Assembly (NCBI GenBank): GCA_000310025.1
Contig: FN649727.1
Location: 1,751,158-1,815,157, forward strand
Length of the DNA: 64,000 bases
Source of the DNA: Ectocarpus siliculosus
Lineage: Eukaryota > Sar > Phaeophyceae > Ectocarpales > Ectocarpaceae
Reading direction: 5' to 3'
Part shown: in pieces, positions 17,761-48,405 of the stretch
How positions within the stretch are numbered: the stretch's first letter is position 1
How the letters are laid out: the number at the start of each line of letters is the position of its first letter
Program-made: the position numbers and the translations under genes
Notes under the pieces: generated by a model
Databases searched by the model: none
The model's input: the letters and a program-made list of their open reading frames with translations, nothing else
Told to the model about the DNA's origin: nothing

Positions 17761-20700
17761 ATGAATAACGGCCACCGAGGAGACTGCAGGCCGTTTGGTC
17801 CACCATTCTACCCCGTCGCCGTCGATCCTGGCGACGAGCGGCTCGGGCTGCTTCCGGAACAAAGATTTCCGAAGTCGTCAAAATTTACCCAGTCGATCTT
17901 GACACATGGGCGGTATTCAAACAACACATTGGATGAGGCGACCAACCTAAAGGAGAGAGAACGCCGGCTCAAGGAGAGAACAATGTAAGGGCGTTGGTCG
18001 CGCGTGTAGCCACACCGTGGAGATGTCTAACGGAATATGACTCCACTGAAACCCGGAACACAAATCGTTCAAAAGGTCCTACAGCAGTACATGTTTGGAT
18101 CCGAGACTGTCGCCGAAGGTCTTTCTCACAAATGTCTGATAGGTTGTGGTTCGTAAACTGTTCTCTTTGGGACACTGCACAGCACTTTATGAGAGTACAC
18201 AATAGCTTGATGCCCCGAGTGCATGTTGAGAATAATTACAACGGCAAGGAGCAACGACAACAGCAACACGAATGAACACTCATGAACCCCCCTTCCAAGA
18301 AGACACAAATGACCCTCCACAGCAAGCGGTAATCGCCATCTCGAAACGGGCATTTATCTCTCTCGTGCCATAGGCGAAAGATGGAGCAAATGTCCGACAA
18401 ATTTCGGTGGGAGGTGAAAGAGGTCAAGCGGATACGAAACGCGGTTCGCCGACGCCAGAGTCGAATAGCTCAGGCGAATCTCCGCGCTTGCTGCGCCATC
18501 ATGATCCAGGCCACGTGGAGAAGATATCAGGCAAAGCTCCTGGCATGGGCCCGGCGGGGCCTGAAGCTCGGTCAGATACTGATGCGGTGGTGGCGACGGT
18601 GAGAGAGAGAAAGAAAAAGGCTCTGAGGACAACCTTTGTTCTCTTGTAGGTCGATACAACACCTCAAACCCAAGATGCTATATTGCATTGGGAACCCCGC
18701 GCATTCGACACGTGTCCCGTGGACAAACGAAAAACAACAGCAGTATGTACTTCGCAAGTTATTCGTTGAGGTTTGTGTATCTGTTTTTCTCACTTTTGCC
18801 CCGTACTAAAATACGTCCCCGGGACGAGAGGGTTGAGCGTCGTAGTCTTGTCCGCCCTCCCTGGCAGGTGCCGGGAGTCGCACATGCTCTTGTACGCCCT
18901 GCCGCACTCCCGTGCGGTGCCAACGGTCGGCCTAGCAGATTTCTTCATCTGCCTTGTCATTCTGGGGAAGATTTCANNNNNNNNNNNNNNNNNNNNNNNN
19001 NNNNNNNNNNNNNNNNNNNNNNNNNNNNNNNNNNNNNNNNNNNNNNNNNNNNNNNNNNNNNNNNNNNNNNNNNNNNCCCGCACGGGAGTGCGGCAGGGCG
19101 TACAAGAGCATGTGGGACTCCCGGCACCTGCCAGGGAGGGCGGACAAGACTACGACGCTCAACCCTCTCGTCCCGGGCACGTATTTTAGTACGGGGCAAA
19201 AGTGAGAAAAACAGATATAGACCCCAAAGAATAACTCGCTTCCAAATGGTACTGTAGTTTTTCATTCGTCCACGGGACACGTGTCGAATGCGCGGGGTTC
19301 TCAATACAAAACATTGGGTTTGGGGTGTTGTTCTCTTTTGTTTTGGGTATTTTTTATCTTTCAGGTCTGGGGACGCAATATGGGCAACAGCAGCACCTTT
19401 GTAGTGATGTTGCAGGGCGCTCTGTCGGGCCGGTTTCCGTTGAAGCTGACACTACCATACGAGCCCCCCTGCCAAGCGACCTTCCCTTCAACTTGCATTG
19501 ACATTAATCGCATTTCACCAGTGGAGGCCAAAACAAGAGCGCAAAGTATATGTTTTCCCTTGAACCCGCTCCGACTTAAAGCTGAACTTCTACATGGTTC
19601 ACTGGTAGGACGCACTCGAGTTGCCTGCCTGTTGGTGGGCAACGCTGTTGAATGACGTCGACGAATGCCGCGAACCGCTCGCTGTTGATGTATGCAGTTG
19701 CTTATCTCATGGCTCCACACAAATGCGTTTTCGATATGTTTCTCTCTGCCTGGCTTTGTTGCACTCAGACACTCGAACTATATGTGATGCTCCACTCGTT
19801 TGCGGCACCTTTTTTCCGACTGTATGCTCGTGTGCTTATTCTTGTGTGTTGATCAAGCAACATCCTCGAAAACGACATCCACTGCAACCCCTTTCGCCCG
19901 CTGCTACATCTCGTTGCGTGCAAATTCAACCTGAAGCTTCAAAGTACGTCAAAGCTTGAAGATAGTGAAGCGGTTCGTCAGCAACAACGTCCAACGCCAC
20001 AGACGACTAAAGTACGAAAAACAGATATCGTCAACGAGGGTTCAGAGGGCATGGAGACGGTGGATGTTGCGCATGAGCTTGAGCCGGATGGTGTTGGCCA
20101 CGGCTGCAACCGAGGTTCGGTCAAGCGCGACGTATGTAACTGTAGTGCATTTTTAAAGGATATTTTGTCAAGAACATGCTACAACCTCTAGTCAAATCGG
20201 GAGCATCTCATCTGAAACGTCGCAATGAAATCGACGACTGCCTGTCTTGCCGAAGAACATCTGTAGATGATTCGATGCGGGACTGCGCTTTCAACAACAA
20301 GCCGACGCCGCCATGAGTACGAACAAGACCAACTTGTGAAGTTGCGCTAGGGGTTTCAGGATTGGGTTGATACCAACGCGGTCATTCCGTTCCGCCGCTC
20401 ACTGCAAACCACAAGGCTTAGTTGGCCATTGCACAGCCCTGTCACGGGTTCTCTCTTCGCCCTTGTCCAAAGCACTCTTGATGGCAGCTGGAAGGCCGGG
20501 GCGCTAGAGGCACGAGACCGTCGCGTTTGTTTCTTTGTCCCTCTTCTGCTCGGAACCCCTATCCTGGCTTCCCGTTTGACCAACCTCACTCCTTCTACTC
20601 CTTCTTGTGTTGTGACCAAACAGGAGGTAATTGAAAACGTGCTGATGGAACTAGCCCGGCAGGTGTACGTCGAAATCAAAGGCGCGGTCATAGCGCGGGC

Positions 20701-27297: not shown

Positions 27298-28115
27298 TGT
27301 TAAGGAGTGTGGCTGCTAGCTTAAATAGGGTACATCTTATTGTTGATAGGATGTGGGTCGGTCTCAGGAGGTATATATACCCTTCAGACACCTACCCTCT
27401 TAGGATTTTGTCTAGTCTGCGTACCCCCCTGAGGTGAAGTTGGATCCCCACTTCACCTCAGACCCTTGCTGATCGTCTCTCAGCAATAACAAGCAACTTT
27501 CTCATCTCTACGTGATCGTGGACAAGCGTGTCAACGACAGAACCTACCTTCATCTATCTCTAGGAGCAAGCTACCACCCACGGCTTCCCCTCCTTTAAAC
27601 TTGGCGTCAGCGGCAGGATTATGTGCGAAGGTGTACCGATTCTGGTAAAAGTCAATCGACGGATACCCTGCGAATCGGGTCCTCCTTAACACTCTCCACC
27701 CACAGAATTTACCCTCAACTGGGAACCTCTTGTGGCCAGGACGGGTAATTCGATGGAAGTGTCACAAGGTTCTTTATAGGATCGATTCCAAGAGGTGTTC
27801 TCAGGACTGACACACATGGTGTCCATGGGAAATGTCCAAGTCAGGAGAAAAAATGTGCACCCAAGGAGATTCGAACCAGTATCCTGCCGCTGACGCCATG
27901 TGCGAAGGTGTACCGATTCTGGTAAAAGTCAATCGACGGATACCCTGCGAATCGGGTCCTCCTTAACACTATGGGAAAATGTCCAAGTCAGGAGAAAAAA
28001 CGTGCACCCAAGGAGATTCGAACCAGTATCCTGCCGCCGACGCCATATGCGAAGGTGTACCGATTCTGGTAAAAGTCAATCGACGGATACCCTGCGAATC
28101 GGGTCCTCCTTAACA
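27298..28115. mobile_element. Small LTR-type (TRIM-like) retroelement with triplicated terminal block
   Basis: It begins TGTTAAGGAG and ends CTCCTTAACA, a perfect 10-bp inverted terminus. It is flanked by direct repeats GAGC (27294-27297 and 28116-28119), or AGAGC if the terminal A is shared. An 18-nt primer-binding-like site, TGGCGTCAGCGGCAGGAT, lies at 27602-27619; its complement ends in CCA and matches a tRNA 3' end with acceptor CGCTGAC. The same 18-mer occurs inverted at 27881-27898 and, with one change, just before 28046. A 71-bp block ending CCTTAACA occurs at 27621-27691, 27898-27968 and 28045-28115. On the minus strand this block plus the 18-mer reads as a short LTR followed by its own primer site. 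No gag or pol seen, so it is non-autonomous. Confidence 0.65.
27370..27461 (+). promoter_or_regulatory. TATA-like palindrome followed by 12-bp-stem hairpin in the left terminal region
   Basis: GGTATATATACC at 27370-27381 is followed by a perfect hairpin: CTGAGGTGAAGT (27429-27440), a 9-nt loop, and ACTTCACCTCAG (27450-27461). The spacing suits a TATA box and a structured 5' leader of an LTR transcript. That role is inferred. Confidence 0.45.
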
Positions 28116-43782: not shown

Positions 43783-43788
43783 CCACAG

Positions 43789-46700
43789 GCGGGTTCCGCG
43801 GTAAAGCCGAATTTATTTGGGGGGGGGGGGGACGGATTGTGACCATCCCCTCCCCAACATTTGAAAATTAAATACAATGATCCTATGTCATACTTATGAT
43901 GATATGCAAAATTTTAAAAACAAACTCGATGGTAGTGGCCGGGTTTCAATAGATTATGCTCTTTTTCGCTCGCCAATTTGCGAAAACGCACAGACCGGGG
44001 ATGATGCCAAAATATCCCCGGTTTTGAAAAATCGTCAGATCGATCTGAAAAATTCAGGGTTTGTCAATTTTGGGGCGGGGATCACGAATCCGTCGTTGGA
44101 TTTGTTTTTCTCGCGTTCTGAACAAAGTTATGATGGGTGTTGTACGTTACACTTTTCTCGCCGCCGCCGATTGAAGCACAACAGAAAAACTGCAAGTTTA
44201 CAAGTCGCAACACGCACAATCTCCACCAAACCACGCGCTTATCTCCACAAAATACAGCAAAAATGCAAACCAAGATTTGAACGCACCATCACCCAGCCCC
44301 TCAATAATATCTACTTGCTGCTACCGCAGAATGAGACCCCAAACTGTGTACCGGTAACCCTGTCCATCTGGCAGGTGGTCGCCCCCTTCCGGAAAACAAT
44401 TTTCTTCGCCTTCTTTTTGCTCCCGACCACAGGATCCACCCCAACCACAGGATCTACACCAGTGACCATGATGACTGTCTCCTCTACTACCTGCTCTTCG
44501 AGCTTCGTGCCGCAGGCCGGGTACTTGCTCCTGGTATAGCACCGCTCGTACTCATGCACGCGACAGGCAGAGCAAAAACAAGAGGCCGAACCGGTGTGCA
44601 GTTTGTGCCGGAGAACCACCTTCTCGACACAAACCGTCTCTTTCGCCAGAGTCGGACCTTCCTCCCCCCCCTCCTCCCCGCCCTCCTCTTCCTCCCCCTC
44701 CCCCTCCCCCTCCCCCTCGTCGTGCTCGTCGTCCTTGTCGTCCTCGTCGTCCTCCTCATTCTCGGAACTTTCTTCCTCTTCGGACTCCTCCGACGACTCT
44801 TCCTCGCTGCTCGCTCTAGCCCCCCCGCCCCCGCCCTTCAAGTTCCCGCCAAGGAGGGCGATATGCCTCACACTCACTGCGGTCGTCCTCTTGCTCCTCC
44901 TGATGCCGTCAGAACCGCCCCCCGCCTCTGCCGCCCGCCCCTCCTCTTCTTGCTCGCCACGGAGGGCGCCTTGCCTCCCTGAACGCTTCCTCTTACCCTT
45001 CCTGGTGCCGCCCGCCCCGCCCCCTGCACCCCCCGCCCCTCCCTCTTCGGGCACGCTGCCCTCTTCCTCCTCCCCAACCTTCCTCGCCGTGAGCACAACC
45101 ATTTCCGTTCCCGCCACCTTCCCCGTCTCCGTTCCCCTCGCCAACTCCCAATCCTTCTTCATGACGTCTGGAATGCGTGAGTTTCCGCTGAGCCCGGTGG
45201 TAGTGGAAGCGTCTCTCGCCGTGTTCGCCCCGATGAAGACGTAAGTGTCCCGCGTACCTTTAATCCCCTTCAGGACCGGCTCCGGCCGATAGATCTCCGT
45301 TGGTCCGACGAGCTTCACATACACACGTCGAATGCGATACGGCGTCCACGAGGCGAAGAAGTCAGCTAGCGTCCTGTCTCCGATGCTCTTGAAGTACTCG
45401 GCCAAGAAGTTCACCACGCCGGCCGCGCCGGTGATGAGCTTACCCCCTGGCCTGAGCATCTCTCTCTTCATGGCACCCTTGGCTATGGCGCCGATGCCGT
45501 CGTGGCTGCCTTTGAAGTGAGACGTAACCGCGAAATGGTGCTCGACGATGTAGCCGAGCTGCCGCACGCTGTTTGACAGAAACCGAAAGTTCCGCTTGCC
45601 CTTGTATTGCTTGGCGCAGCCGTCCGTGAAAATGTGCATGCGGGGCGTCCGCTTCTCCTCTCGAGCGGCCGCAGTTGCTGCGCTTCCGTCTCCGTCAAGG
45701 TAGTGATCGGCGATTTGACGCATCCCATGGAGGTGGAAGTCGAAGTCGTGGCGAGGGTCTTCGGAAGCAAAGATCCATGTCTCGGTGAGGTGCACCCTGC
45801 CGCCGCCTTCCAACACTTGCGGGCTGAAGTGTACCACTGCGACCATGAGGGTGGTCGATTCGTGTCTCGCACACGTCAGAACGGATGGAGGGACATGTTC
45901 GAACTTCTCGATGAAGTCCACCTCAATAACCAGGTCGCCGTTTGGGAACGTGTACATGTCCTCCCTGTGGCAGTTCCTCCCCCACATGGCCTTCGTGTGG
46001 TGATCCATGTACACCTTGCTGTGCTGCTTGAAATCCCTCCAAAGATCGCAGAGCTTGCCCTCCTTGGTCACTAGTTGGTTCGGCAGCGGTTTCTTCCCCT
46101 CCCTGTCTAGATCTTCGTAGCGCGTCCACTCCACCAGCTGCTGAGACTCCTCCAGTGCCTTGCACGTGGGAATGCCCCCCTCCCGCCCGAACCCACAGAC
46201 CTCACAGTCCGAAGAACCGCATTCCGGCTTCCGCCCCATGAACTCACCCGTGGCGTCGGGGTCCCCAGCTCGCAGGTCAACCTTTGGGCACGCGATGGCT
46301 TCCGAGAAAGACCCAAGGTTCGACCACATCTTCTTCCACTCGGAGCCTCCATTCTCCACGCTGCACCACCGACAGTTGCACGCGTCACGCCCCTGCACGT
46401 CAACCTCACGAAGCGCAGCCAGGTAATAAGTTTGCTGCGTGTGGATCTTGCACGCGCACTGGTCTGTCTTCGGGGAAGTCAAGCACCTGCACCGCGTCGA
46501 GAGGAACAGAGTGCGGCCGGGGTCCGCCAGGACCTCGCCGTTCTCCTCCTTCCAGACCCTCTTGAAGTTGATCCAACCTGGCCACACCAAGAACTTTTCG
46601 TAGACTGCCTCACCCTGTCCCTCCACGATGAGCTGCCGACGAGGGTGTCCTTTCGCACTGGGCGACTTGGATTCCCGCCAGATGTCCTTGGAGTTCCCCG

Positions 46701-48399
46701 ATGCACGAGATACCTCGTCGGTGTGCCAGAATGTTCCCATGAGCTCCAGCATTTCTGGAGGGGTTGCGTCGCTCCTCTTGGTCCGGGAGTGGAAGTAGTA
46801 CGCCTTCTCGTCGATTGCCTGAAGTGGAGGGAGCTCAGGCCTCAGCGCTGTCACCCGCCGTCGGGCGACGACGAGGTGCTCTGGGTGAACGCCAAAGATC
46901 TCGGACTTGCGCTTGGCTGTCACCTTCGAAGGCCCGTCTCCATCGTACGCAACAGCCGTGAGCAACGTCTGGAACGTTCTCCTTCCCTCTTTGGTTCGCC
47001 CTTGGATTGCGGCATCCTTTAAGGCTCTACGACATGCCGATTGGAGCTCCCTCGCTTCCTCCAGCTGCTCTCGAAGCTTGTCAGCGGCGGGCACCTTGAG
47101 CTCTGCCAGACACCGCAACAACTCTGTTGTGGTCATCGCTCTCATGGCCGCCACGAATTGCTGGCGAGGTGTCACTCCACTCGAATTGCTCTGGTGGCTG
47201 GAAGGTTTGAGCGGCAGGGTGGGTCAAGTGCAACGTACAGCAGTGGGGGCATTTGGAAACGTCAGCGCTGGGGTAGCAGCAGAAGAAATCAAGAATGAAA
47301 GCCTGTGATTCAATTTTTACTTCGATGCGAATACCAAATGTACACTCGCCGTAGACAGCAATCGGAAGTTGCGCCAGTGGTGGCATACAACGCATCGAGC
47401 GAGAGCAATCCACAACTCTGGAGGTAGAGAAGAAGTCTCGCATCACAGCGAACACTCGTTGTTACCTTCAGCAGTCGGCAGGCATCTACGGTAAAGAGAG
47501 CAGACAGCAGTCTACAACCAAAGGTGGTACCAGTACATGCAGGCAACCTTTCAGTTTTGTTTTCCCATACAGCAGTACCCTCAAGGTTGTTGTTTTTTCA
47601 TCTAGTACAACAGAAGAGGAGAGGGGTTCAAGAGGGGATAGCGAGAGAAAGACAGCAGACAGACCCAGCAGCACCCAGCAGCAGCAGATTCTTACCTCTT
47701 CCTCAGGGGGGCGATCGGGAGCAGTCGGCCTTGTAACGCCAGCACGAGTCTTCCGCGGCAACGCCGCTCTCACTGGACAGCTCATCTCGCTGTCTGCCCT
47801 CCTGCCGGTGTTGCCGCATCTTCGCACGCCGCTGCTAGGCTGCAGTGTTTTTTCGTATCTGTCCCTTCTCGTCTTCAAGATTTCCTCGGCCTTTTCCCTA
47901 GCTTTCGAGCATAAGGCATCCTCGTCATCCTTGCGGTAGGCCACAAGCTGTACGACAACGCGGGTATCCTTCCGCTGGTCCATCAGCTTGGTGGTGAGCT
48001 TGAGGCCTAGGTCGTGTGGAACCCATTGGTGCGTTACTTTCCACTGCTTGTCTCCCAGCGGTACGATGCGGATGCAGTTGCCCGCTGGGATGCCAGCTCC
48101 AGCCCCAGCCCCACTCATATATGGCCCCCTCCCGCGGCCACTTTTGGTCAGACCAACTTTCTGAGTGGCTCTACCCCCCCTAAATCGGCCAAGCGGAGTC
48201 GATTGCCGAGGAGAAATGGAGGCGGCGAGATCGGGAATGCGCCGAAAAAAAAAGTTCGGCATGATCCGAACTGATTTTTTTTTATTTCTCTTTTTTCTAT
48301 GCGCTGAAACGTCGTTTTAGACTTAGAACCAAAAGCGTTTTTTTGAAAAAAGTTTTTTTCGCCGCGGGAGACCCAATTCGTCTTGACCGCGGAACCCGC
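43789..48399. mobile_element. Complete 4.6-kb TIR DNA transposon, superfamily not recognised
   Basis: The left terminus 43789-43813 starts GCGGGTTCCGCGGTAAAGCC. The reverse complement of 48375-48399 starts GCGGGTTCCGCGGTCAAGAC. The two agree at 23 of 25 positions. Direct repeats CCACAG at 43783-43788 and 48400-48405 form a 6-bp target duplication. A single two-exon gene on the minus strand fills the interior. Near the left end there are an 8-bp-stem inverted repeat (ACCGGGGA/TCCCCGGT, 43994-44022) and a palindrome CAGATCGATCTG (44036-44047). Near the right end AGTTCGG...CCGAACT (48251-48270) may be subterminal transposase sites. Near-intact ends and open reading frames suggest recent activity. 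Confidence 0.9.
44311..48262 (-). CDS. DDE-like transposase of the 43789-48399 element, two exons
   Basis: Exon 1 is 48262-47696 (donor GAG|GTAAGA) and exon 2 is 47190-44311; phase 0 is kept, giving about 1,148 residues. Exon 1 encodes a basic N-terminus with RIVPLGDKQWKVTHQWVPHD. Exon 2 encodes, in order: a helical region; cysteine clusters (CRCLTSPKTDQCAC, CNCRWC, CEVCGFG) that look zinc-binding; then a catalytic-looking core with LVIEVDFIEKF, HIFTDGCAKQYKGKRNFRF and FAVTSHFKGSHDGIGAIAKG. Candidate acidic residues are D420, D518 and D559 or E593 (numbered from the first codon of the ORF at 47175; add 194 for the spliced protein). The C-terminus has Gly/Glu-rich acidic repeats and a final cluster, CFCSACRVHEYERC. 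I know similar DG..QYK/SH.KG..DG.G proteins only as unannotated families, and assign no superfamily. An alternative start is at MSGAGAG (48115). Confidence 0.8.
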
Positions 48400-48405
48400 C
48401 CACAG

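What the first reader, a model, noticed from the sequence alone, without database searches (positions are those of the whole stretch)
43789..48399. Intact DNA transposon with a transposase of no superfamily I can name
The element is delimited on three independent grounds: 25-bp termini with two mismatches, a 6-bp duplication CCACAG, and a two-exon gene lying wholly inside. The termini start GCGGG, which I do not associate with a named 6-bp-duplication group. The protein has three candidate acidic residues set in VIEVDF, FTDGCAKQYK and SHDGIG, plus several Cys clusters. Similar motif proteins are familiar to me only as uncharacterised.
Basis: partly seen in the sequence, partly recalled or inferred. 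Interest (0 to 1): 0.83.

Follow-up and report, generated by a model that had tools for sequence, protein, structure and literature searches.

The report
Recently mobile brown-alga DNA transposon
This is a real, recently mobile cut-and-paste jumping gene in what looks like a brown alga, present in several nearly identical copies; its enzyme matches no family in the libraries we could search, and its insertion footprint is most likely 4 bases rather than the 6 first reported.

Summary
The finding is a genuine DNA transposon. The window's genome (189.5 Mb, probably a brown alga) holds six further copies, 99.6-99.96% identical over their matched parts; five copies, the window's included, are complete and lie on different contigs with different target duplications. 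The termini occur 23 times, a reversed control pattern 0 times. Three shorter two-ended derivatives exist. Two corrections. (1) The duplication is most likely 4 bp, not 6: the inner 4 bp match in 8 of 8 two-ended copies, 6 bp in 6 of 8, and at one site six of six uninterrupted repeat copies show that the outermost C came with the element. The element is then 43788-48400 (4613 bp), with 26-bp inverted repeats beginning GGCGGG and a preferred target CNNNNG. (2) The window copy has one extra base in exon 2; two of seven copies read a 1150-aa protein. Distant relatives in the genome (22-29% identical) keep three aspartates, D616, D714, D755, suggesting a DDD RNase H-like transposase. No credible match in Pfam, NCBIfam or PDB sequences; structure prediction failed. 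DDD plus 4-bp duplication is the published profile of Sola, but membership could not be tested. The catalytic fold is inferred.

The parts
43788..48400 (-). whole element as corrected (4613 bp); gene on the minus strand
   Evidence: 26-bp inverted arms; five complete copies with the same limits
43788..43813 (+). terminal inverted repeat at the gene's 3' side (GGCGGGTTCCGCGGTAAAGCCGAATT)
   Evidence: base next to GCGGG is G in 23 of 23 ends
48375..48400 (-). terminal inverted repeat at the gene's 5' side (GGCGGGTTCCGCGGTCAAGACGAATT read on minus)
43784..43787 (.). target-site duplication CACA, low-coordinate copy (within the C-CACA-G that was read as 6 bp)
   Evidence: 4 bp identical in 8 of 8 two-ended copies, 6 bp in 6 of 8; six uninterrupted repeat copies at L011
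48401..48404 (.). target-site duplication CACA, high-coordinate copy
   Evidence: as above
47696..48262 (-). exon 1 coding part, ATG to GT donor (189 codons)
   Evidence: same GT..AG borders in 7 of 7 copies
47198..47695 (-). intron (GTAAGAATC ... CTTCCAG), 498 bp
   Evidence: inferred from the open frame in two other copies, no transcript data
44311..47197 (-). exon 2 coding part to stop; the window copy has one extra A near 47159
46186..46491 (-). Cys/His cluster upstream of the core (CRC..CACKIH..CNCRWC..CGSSDCEVCGFG), candidate zinc-binding module
   Evidence: sequence; most of the Cys by eye also in relative L051; zinc binding is inference
45916..45918 (-). first catalytic Asp candidate (VIEVDF; D616 of the 1150-aa protein)
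   Evidence: invariant in 4 of 4 aligned sequences, window included; position
45622..45624 (-). second catalytic Asp candidate (FTDGCAKQ; D714)
45499..45501 (-). third catalytic Asp candidate (SHFKGSHDGIG; D755), six residues after invariant His749
44512..44580 (-). C-terminal Cys/His cluster (CFCSACRVHEYERCYTRSKYPAC)
   Evidence: sequence

Best explanation
A recently mobile, autonomous cut-and-paste DNA transposon. Its one gene, a two-exon gene giving a protein of about 1150 aa, encodes a transposase. The transposase is thought to bind the 26-bp inverted repeats (probably through its Cys/His clusters), cut the element out with an RNase H-like active site made of three aspartates (D616, D714, D755), and insert it at a 4-bp staggered cut in a CNNNNG site, which leaves a 4-bp target duplication. 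Shown: element limits, several near-identical copies, distinct duplications, uninterrupted repeat copies at one site, shorter two-ended derivatives (presumably moved in trans), and conservation of the three D's. Inferred: the catalytic fold, the chemistry, the role of the Cys clusters, and splicing in vivo.
For: Copies: 7 near-identical places, of which 5 are complete with both ends. Reversed-pattern control 0 against 23. TSD: inner 4 bp equal in 8 of 8 two-ended copies; at L011, 6 of 6 uninterrupted repeat copies that span the site read T before the 4-bp stretch, as the left flank does. Two right ends whose left end is not seen (L044, L045) have A and C where the 6-bp or 5-bp readings expect G. 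Catalysis: D616, D714, D755 with H749 and K751 invariant in window, L049, L050 and L064, whereas the E of SDSEGA or SDAEGG in the relatives is I in the window. L010 and L012 read 1150 aa without a stop.
Against: E741 is also invariant in the four aligned sequences, so the third acidic residue could be E741 instead of D755. AlphaFold2 without an alignment gave no usable model (pLDDT 31.6 and 31.9). No profile or PDB match supports a transposase fold. Only 2 of 7 copies read through the whole frame; single-base indels are common, and assembly error cannot be told from decay. dN/dS against the older copy L039 was 0.68 over 630 codons, which is not informative. No orthologous empty site, transcript or transposition data.
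Confidence: 0.85

Rival explanations
1. It is a member of the Sola superfamily (DDD transposase, 4-bp duplications), possibly the very family listed as Sola-2 in the published Ectocarpus catalogue. This would refine, not replace, the best explanation.
For: A review describes Sola as encoding DDD-TPase, flanked by 4-bp TSDs, mostly 2-9 kb, TIRs 11-1124 bp, variable termini (PMC10741241, passage); a choanoflagellate Sola1 element has 32-bp terminal repeats and a 4-bp TSD (PMC6875170, passage). This element has three D's, 4 bp, 4.6 kb and 26-bp TIRs. The Ectocarpus table lists one Sola-2 family with 48 copies, 14 intact, 0.04% of the genome (PMC12477816), a size compatible with a 4.6-kb element.
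Against: No Sola protein sequence was available for comparison; the paper defining Sola is not held. The resemblance is of general anatomy only.
Confidence: 0.4
2. The duplication is 6 bp (CCACAG), with a palindromic CNNNNG target.
For: 6 of 8 two-ended copies have identical 6-bp flanks.
Against: L009 and L011, both nearly identical to the window copy, mismatch at exactly the outermost base. At L011 the uninterrupted repeat copies show the left T is native in 6 of 6. L044 and L045 flanks also depart from CNNNNG.
Confidence: 0.1
3. It belongs to Dada, a superfamily with 6-7-bp duplications reported from Ectocarpus.
For: Dada-1_ES from Ectocarpus siliculosus spans 4688 bp (CABU01001069 5888-1201, PMC3706591, first two of four parts of the text read), similar in length; Dada also has introns and Cys motifs.
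Against: Dada elements with definable termini lack terminal inverted repeats and insert in snRNA or tRNA genes; this one has 26-bp repeats, and no tRNA (ARAGORN) or Rfam match at gathering threshold was found in the window or in nine copy loci. Ectocarpus Dada carries a DEDDy exonuclease domain; no such Pfam match here.
Confidence: 0.03
4. It is the founding member of a transposase superfamily not yet described.
For: No credible match in Pfam, NCBIfam or PDB sequences, phage or plasmid records, IMG/VR contigs or GTDB genome contigs; profile comparison with in-genome DUF7869 proteins is at chance.
Against: None of these collections is a eukaryotic transposase library such as Repbase, so absence says little.
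Confidence: 0.15

Closest known systems
Sola DNA transposons (Sola1/Sola2)
   Same: three catalytic D's, 4-bp duplications, 2-9 kb size, short and variable terminal repeats (published description, PMC10741241 passage; PMC6875170 passage)
   Different: sequence relationship untested; no Sola reference available
Dada-1_ES of Ectocarpus
   Same: similar length, probably a related host, intron-bearing gene
   Different: Dada has no terminal inverted repeats, targets snRNA/tRNA genes, 6-7-bp duplications, exonuclease domain (PMC3706591)
DUF7869 proteins (PF25273) in the same genome
   Same: by eye: an Asp motif (DNxxxENKN) and a later HTHIxID motif with D-to-D distance 42 against 41 and His six residues before the last Asp
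   Different: profile comparison at chance: hhalign probability 0.6%; 88 of 200 shuffles score as high
'DNA/Unknown' families of the Ectocarpus catalogue (51 families)
   Same: unclassified brown-alga DNA transposons; this element may be one of them
   Different: sequences in supplements not readable here

Membership tests
cut-and-paste TIR DNA transposon | inverted terminal repeats at both ends | tested here: met
   26 bp, 92% complementary; 23 ends in the genome
cut-and-paste TIR DNA transposon | target-site duplication of constant length at different sites | tested here: met
   4 bp in 8 of 8 two-ended copies; 7 distinct 4-mers among the 8
cut-and-paste TIR DNA transposon | several near-identical copies at unrelated sites | tested here: met
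cut-and-paste TIR DNA transposon | empty site without the element | tested here: inconclusive
   4 of 8 joined flanks were searched. L011: six paralogous repeat copies uninterrupted, not the orthologous site; L009 and window gave only their own flanks, L010 only its right flank is repetitive
cut-and-paste TIR DNA transposon | RNase H-like DDE/D catalytic core | tested here: inconclusive
   three invariant D's; structure prediction failed
Sola | 4-bp target duplication | tested here: met
   an asymmetric 5-bp reading is disfavoured but not strictly excluded
Sola | DDD-type transposase | tested here: inconclusive
   three invariant D's, but E741 is invariant too and catalysis is not shown
Sola | transposase sequence similarity to Sola proteins | not testable with these tools
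   no Sola sequences held; defining paper not held
Dada | no terminal inverted repeats | tested here: not met
   26-bp TIRs
Dada | insertion into snRNA or tRNA genes | tested here: not met
   no tRNA or Rfam match in the window or nine copy loci
KDZ / Zisupton | KDZ transposase domain (PF18758) | tested here: inconclusive
   no Pfam match, but the profile rang nowhere in this genome or in 14 controls
DUF7869 | profile match to PF25273 | tested here: not met
   no Pfam match; profile-profile at chance

The most novel reading that the evidence does not exclude
The element and its distant in-genome relatives (L049, L050, L064) define an undescribed superfamily of DDD transposases, with motifs DFxE, TD(N/G)CAKQ(F/Y)K and HxKxxxDxxG, and, for this element, 4-bp duplications at CNNNNG sites and GGCGGG termini, very recently mobile in a brown alga.
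Probability: 0.15. Interest if true: 0.6.

Novelty: new member of a known kind. Interest (0 to 1): 0.4.

Why it matters
A young transposon with a clean anatomy in a brown alga would be a tractable starting point for a transposition assay or gene-delivery tool in that group. It also gives a well-delimited test case for one of the many brown-alga DNA transposons that remain unclassified. The corrected 4-bp footprint changes which superfamilies should be compared with it.

Tried and rejected
Chance termini: rejected by 23 against 0 in the reversed control. 6-bp duplication: disfavoured. A 5-bp duplication with unequal ends: not fully excluded, because in all 8 two-ended copies the base after the 4 bp is G; disfavoured because L044 and L045 have A and C there. 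Dada: rejected on TIRs and targets. DUF7869: motifs looked alike by eye, but profile comparison was at chance. The PDB profile hit to IFT172 (E 0.0035), a PDB hit at E 0.25 and the weak Pfam hits DUF4226, DUF7121 and GspL_C were judged spurious. Two AlphaFold2 runs failed to give a usable model. No confirmed relatives in viral contigs, GTDB genome contigs, phages or plasmids. dN/dS against L039 was uninformative. Boundaries of the L050 relative could not be found because both copies lie in a segmental duplication of about 7 kb that runs to the ends of the stretches fetched. A family search for KDZ rang nowhere and shows nothing. The accessions PF25273, PF19114 and PF18758 were recalled; the tool confirmed their names.
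Full report
OBSERVATION. The termini reported at 43789 and 48399 are there: 25 bp with two mismatches, or 26-bp arms if the adjoining base pair is counted. The letters CCACAG stand on both sides. A minus-strand gene lies inside, with the three motifs named.

COPIES. The window lies in a held genome of 189.5 Mb in 492 contigs. The core of exon 2 matches eight places: seven at 100% and one at 71%. Over the whole element, L009, L010, L011 and L014 are complete at 99.85-99.96%. L012 matches 4602 of 4611 bp (99.8%) and has lost its last bases. L013 matches at 99.6% until an assembly gap. The termini as a pattern with up to three mismatches occur 23 times; the reversed pattern occurs 0 times. Further ends belong to copies interrupted by runs of N (L042, L043, L044) or by a contig end (L045), so the copy number is a lower bound. 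Shorter two-ended forms are L039 (3049 bp, two main aligned blocks at 92% and 95%), L040 (900 bp) and L041 (857 bp), the last two sharing only about the first 250-270 bp at 80-82% plus the far terminus. L046 shows one related end (74% over 270 bp).

TARGET DUPLICATION. In 23 of 23 ends the base next to GCGGG is G; six bases out it is C in 19 of 23. In the 8 two-ended copies, the inner four bases agree in 8 of 8 and six bases in 6 of 8. L009 (ggtgag/cgtgag) and L011 (tcgtgg/ccgtgg) disagree only at the outermost base. L011 sits in a dispersed repeat: one search gave eight matches besides its own two flanks, six of which span the insertion point. Five of these (L052-L056) were aligned and the sixth, which lies beside the insertion itself; six of six carry T before the 4-bp stretch (CGTG in four, CATG and CGCG in one each), so the C on the element's right side is not from the target. 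The simplest account is an element that begins and ends with GGCGGG...CCCGCC, a 4-bp duplication and a preference for CNNNNG targets. The base following the 4 bp is G in all 8 two-ended copies, so an asymmetric 5-bp reading is not strictly excluded; L044 (A) and L045 (C) speak against it. Joined flanks of four of the eight copies were searched: the window copy and L009 returned only their own flanks, and only the right flank of L010 is repetitive, so no empty site was seen there.

GENE. Seven of seven copies keep the same GT..AG intron borders. L010 and L012 read 1150 codons from the ATG; the other five stop at 92 to 799 codons. The window copy has an extra A near 47159 that six of six other copies lack; spliced at the first acceptor it stops after 227 aa. 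An AG seven bases downstream would put it in the frame of the long window ORF (by eye, untested). Single-base indels private to one copy occur in several copies, and assembly error cannot be told from decay.

RELATIVES AND ACTIVE SITE. A protein search of the genome gave 26 matches, and a second one from L049 gave 15. L015 (31-59% in pieces) and L051 (29-45% in pieces) are broken and were read in pieces. L049 (315 aa), L050 (284 aa) and L064 (340 aa) are uninterrupted frames at 22-29% identity to the transposase. In the alignment of window, L049, L050 and L064, D62, D160 and D201 of the core (D616, D714 and D755 of the protein) are invariant, with H749, K751 and also E741; the E of SDSEGA/SDAEGG in the relatives is I in the window, so the third acidic residue is most simply D755, although E741 is not excluded. 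The order of strand-like and helix-like stretches around them fits an RNase H-like fold by eye, which is inference only. AlphaFold2 without an alignment gave no usable model.

COMPARISON. No match in Pfam for exon 1, exon 2, the core, 895 residues of the L010 protein and the relatives L049, L050, L051 and L064, apart from weak hits below cut-off; none in NCBIfam for the two exons; nothing credible in PDB sequences. No confirmed relative in phages, plasmids, viral contigs or GTDB genome contigs. None of these collections is a eukaryotic transposon library. DUF7869 proteins in the same genome (15 matches, 12 over the cut-off) looked alike at two motifs, but hhalign gave 0.6% probability, and 88 of 200 column shuffles scored as high as the real D2-D3 pairing.

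LITERATURE. PMC10741241 (passages): Sola encodes DDD-TPase, 4-bp TSDs, mostly 2-9 kb, TIRs 11-1124 bp. PMC6875170 (passages): a Sola1 element of a choanoflagellate, 3270 bp, 32-bp repeats, 4-bp TSD. PMC4455052 (passages): how Repbase separates superfamilies. PMC3706591 (parts 1 and 2 of 4): Dada lacks TIRs and targets snRNA and tRNA genes; Ectocarpus has Dada-1_ES with an exonuclease domain. PMC12477816 (abstract, section 5 and passages): the Ectocarpus catalogue lists Sola-1, Sola-2, Dada, KDZ and 51 DNA/Unknown families; supplements were not available. The papers that define Sola and compare the superfamilies' catalytic domains are not held. Paper searches answered; nothing visible in the listings names this element, which does not show that it is unpublished.

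HOST. 150 EsV-1-7 repeat matches (150 of 880 candidates were scored) against none in 14 control genomes, a domain said to have proliferated in brown algae (PMC12477816). The host is therefore probably a brown alga, perhaps Ectocarpus; the species was not determined.

VERDICT. A real, young, probably autonomous DDD-type cut-and-paste transposon with, most likely, a 4-bp duplication. Superfamily unresolved here; Sola is the leading candidate by anatomy.

Noticed in passing
window 18778-19217: Near-perfect 140-bp inverted repeat (99%) whose arms flank a stretch containing a 100-base run of N (18977-19076); a foldback element or an assembly artefact.
   Followed up: partly
L049:701-1645, L050:411-1262, L064:195-1214 (minus strands): Uninterrupted frames of 315, 284 and 340 aa, distant relatives of the transposase. 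Each has a second match elsewhere with a frame of the same length (C90, C15:3382117, C27); other transposons or domesticated genes. L050's two copies lie in a segmental duplication of about 7 kb, 97.7% identical.
   Followed up: partly
L060-L063: DUF7869 proteins in the same genome (15 matches, none in 14 control genomes) with DNxxxENKN and GHTHIxID motifs, possibly another uncharacterised transposase group.
   Followed up: partly
L012 around 6702; L043 around 5782: Two copies have lost about 7-10 terminal bases at one end; imprecise excision or end repair is possible. L043 is interrupted by an assembly gap, so its halves may not be one copy.
   Followed up: no
window 27825-28115: Tandem pair of a 147-bp unit, 97% matches.
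   Followed up: no
L015: Older, broken relative of the element on contig C456 (best piece 55-58% protein identity); a scan for the 26-bp terminus allowing 9 mismatches found one weak match only.
   Followed up: partly
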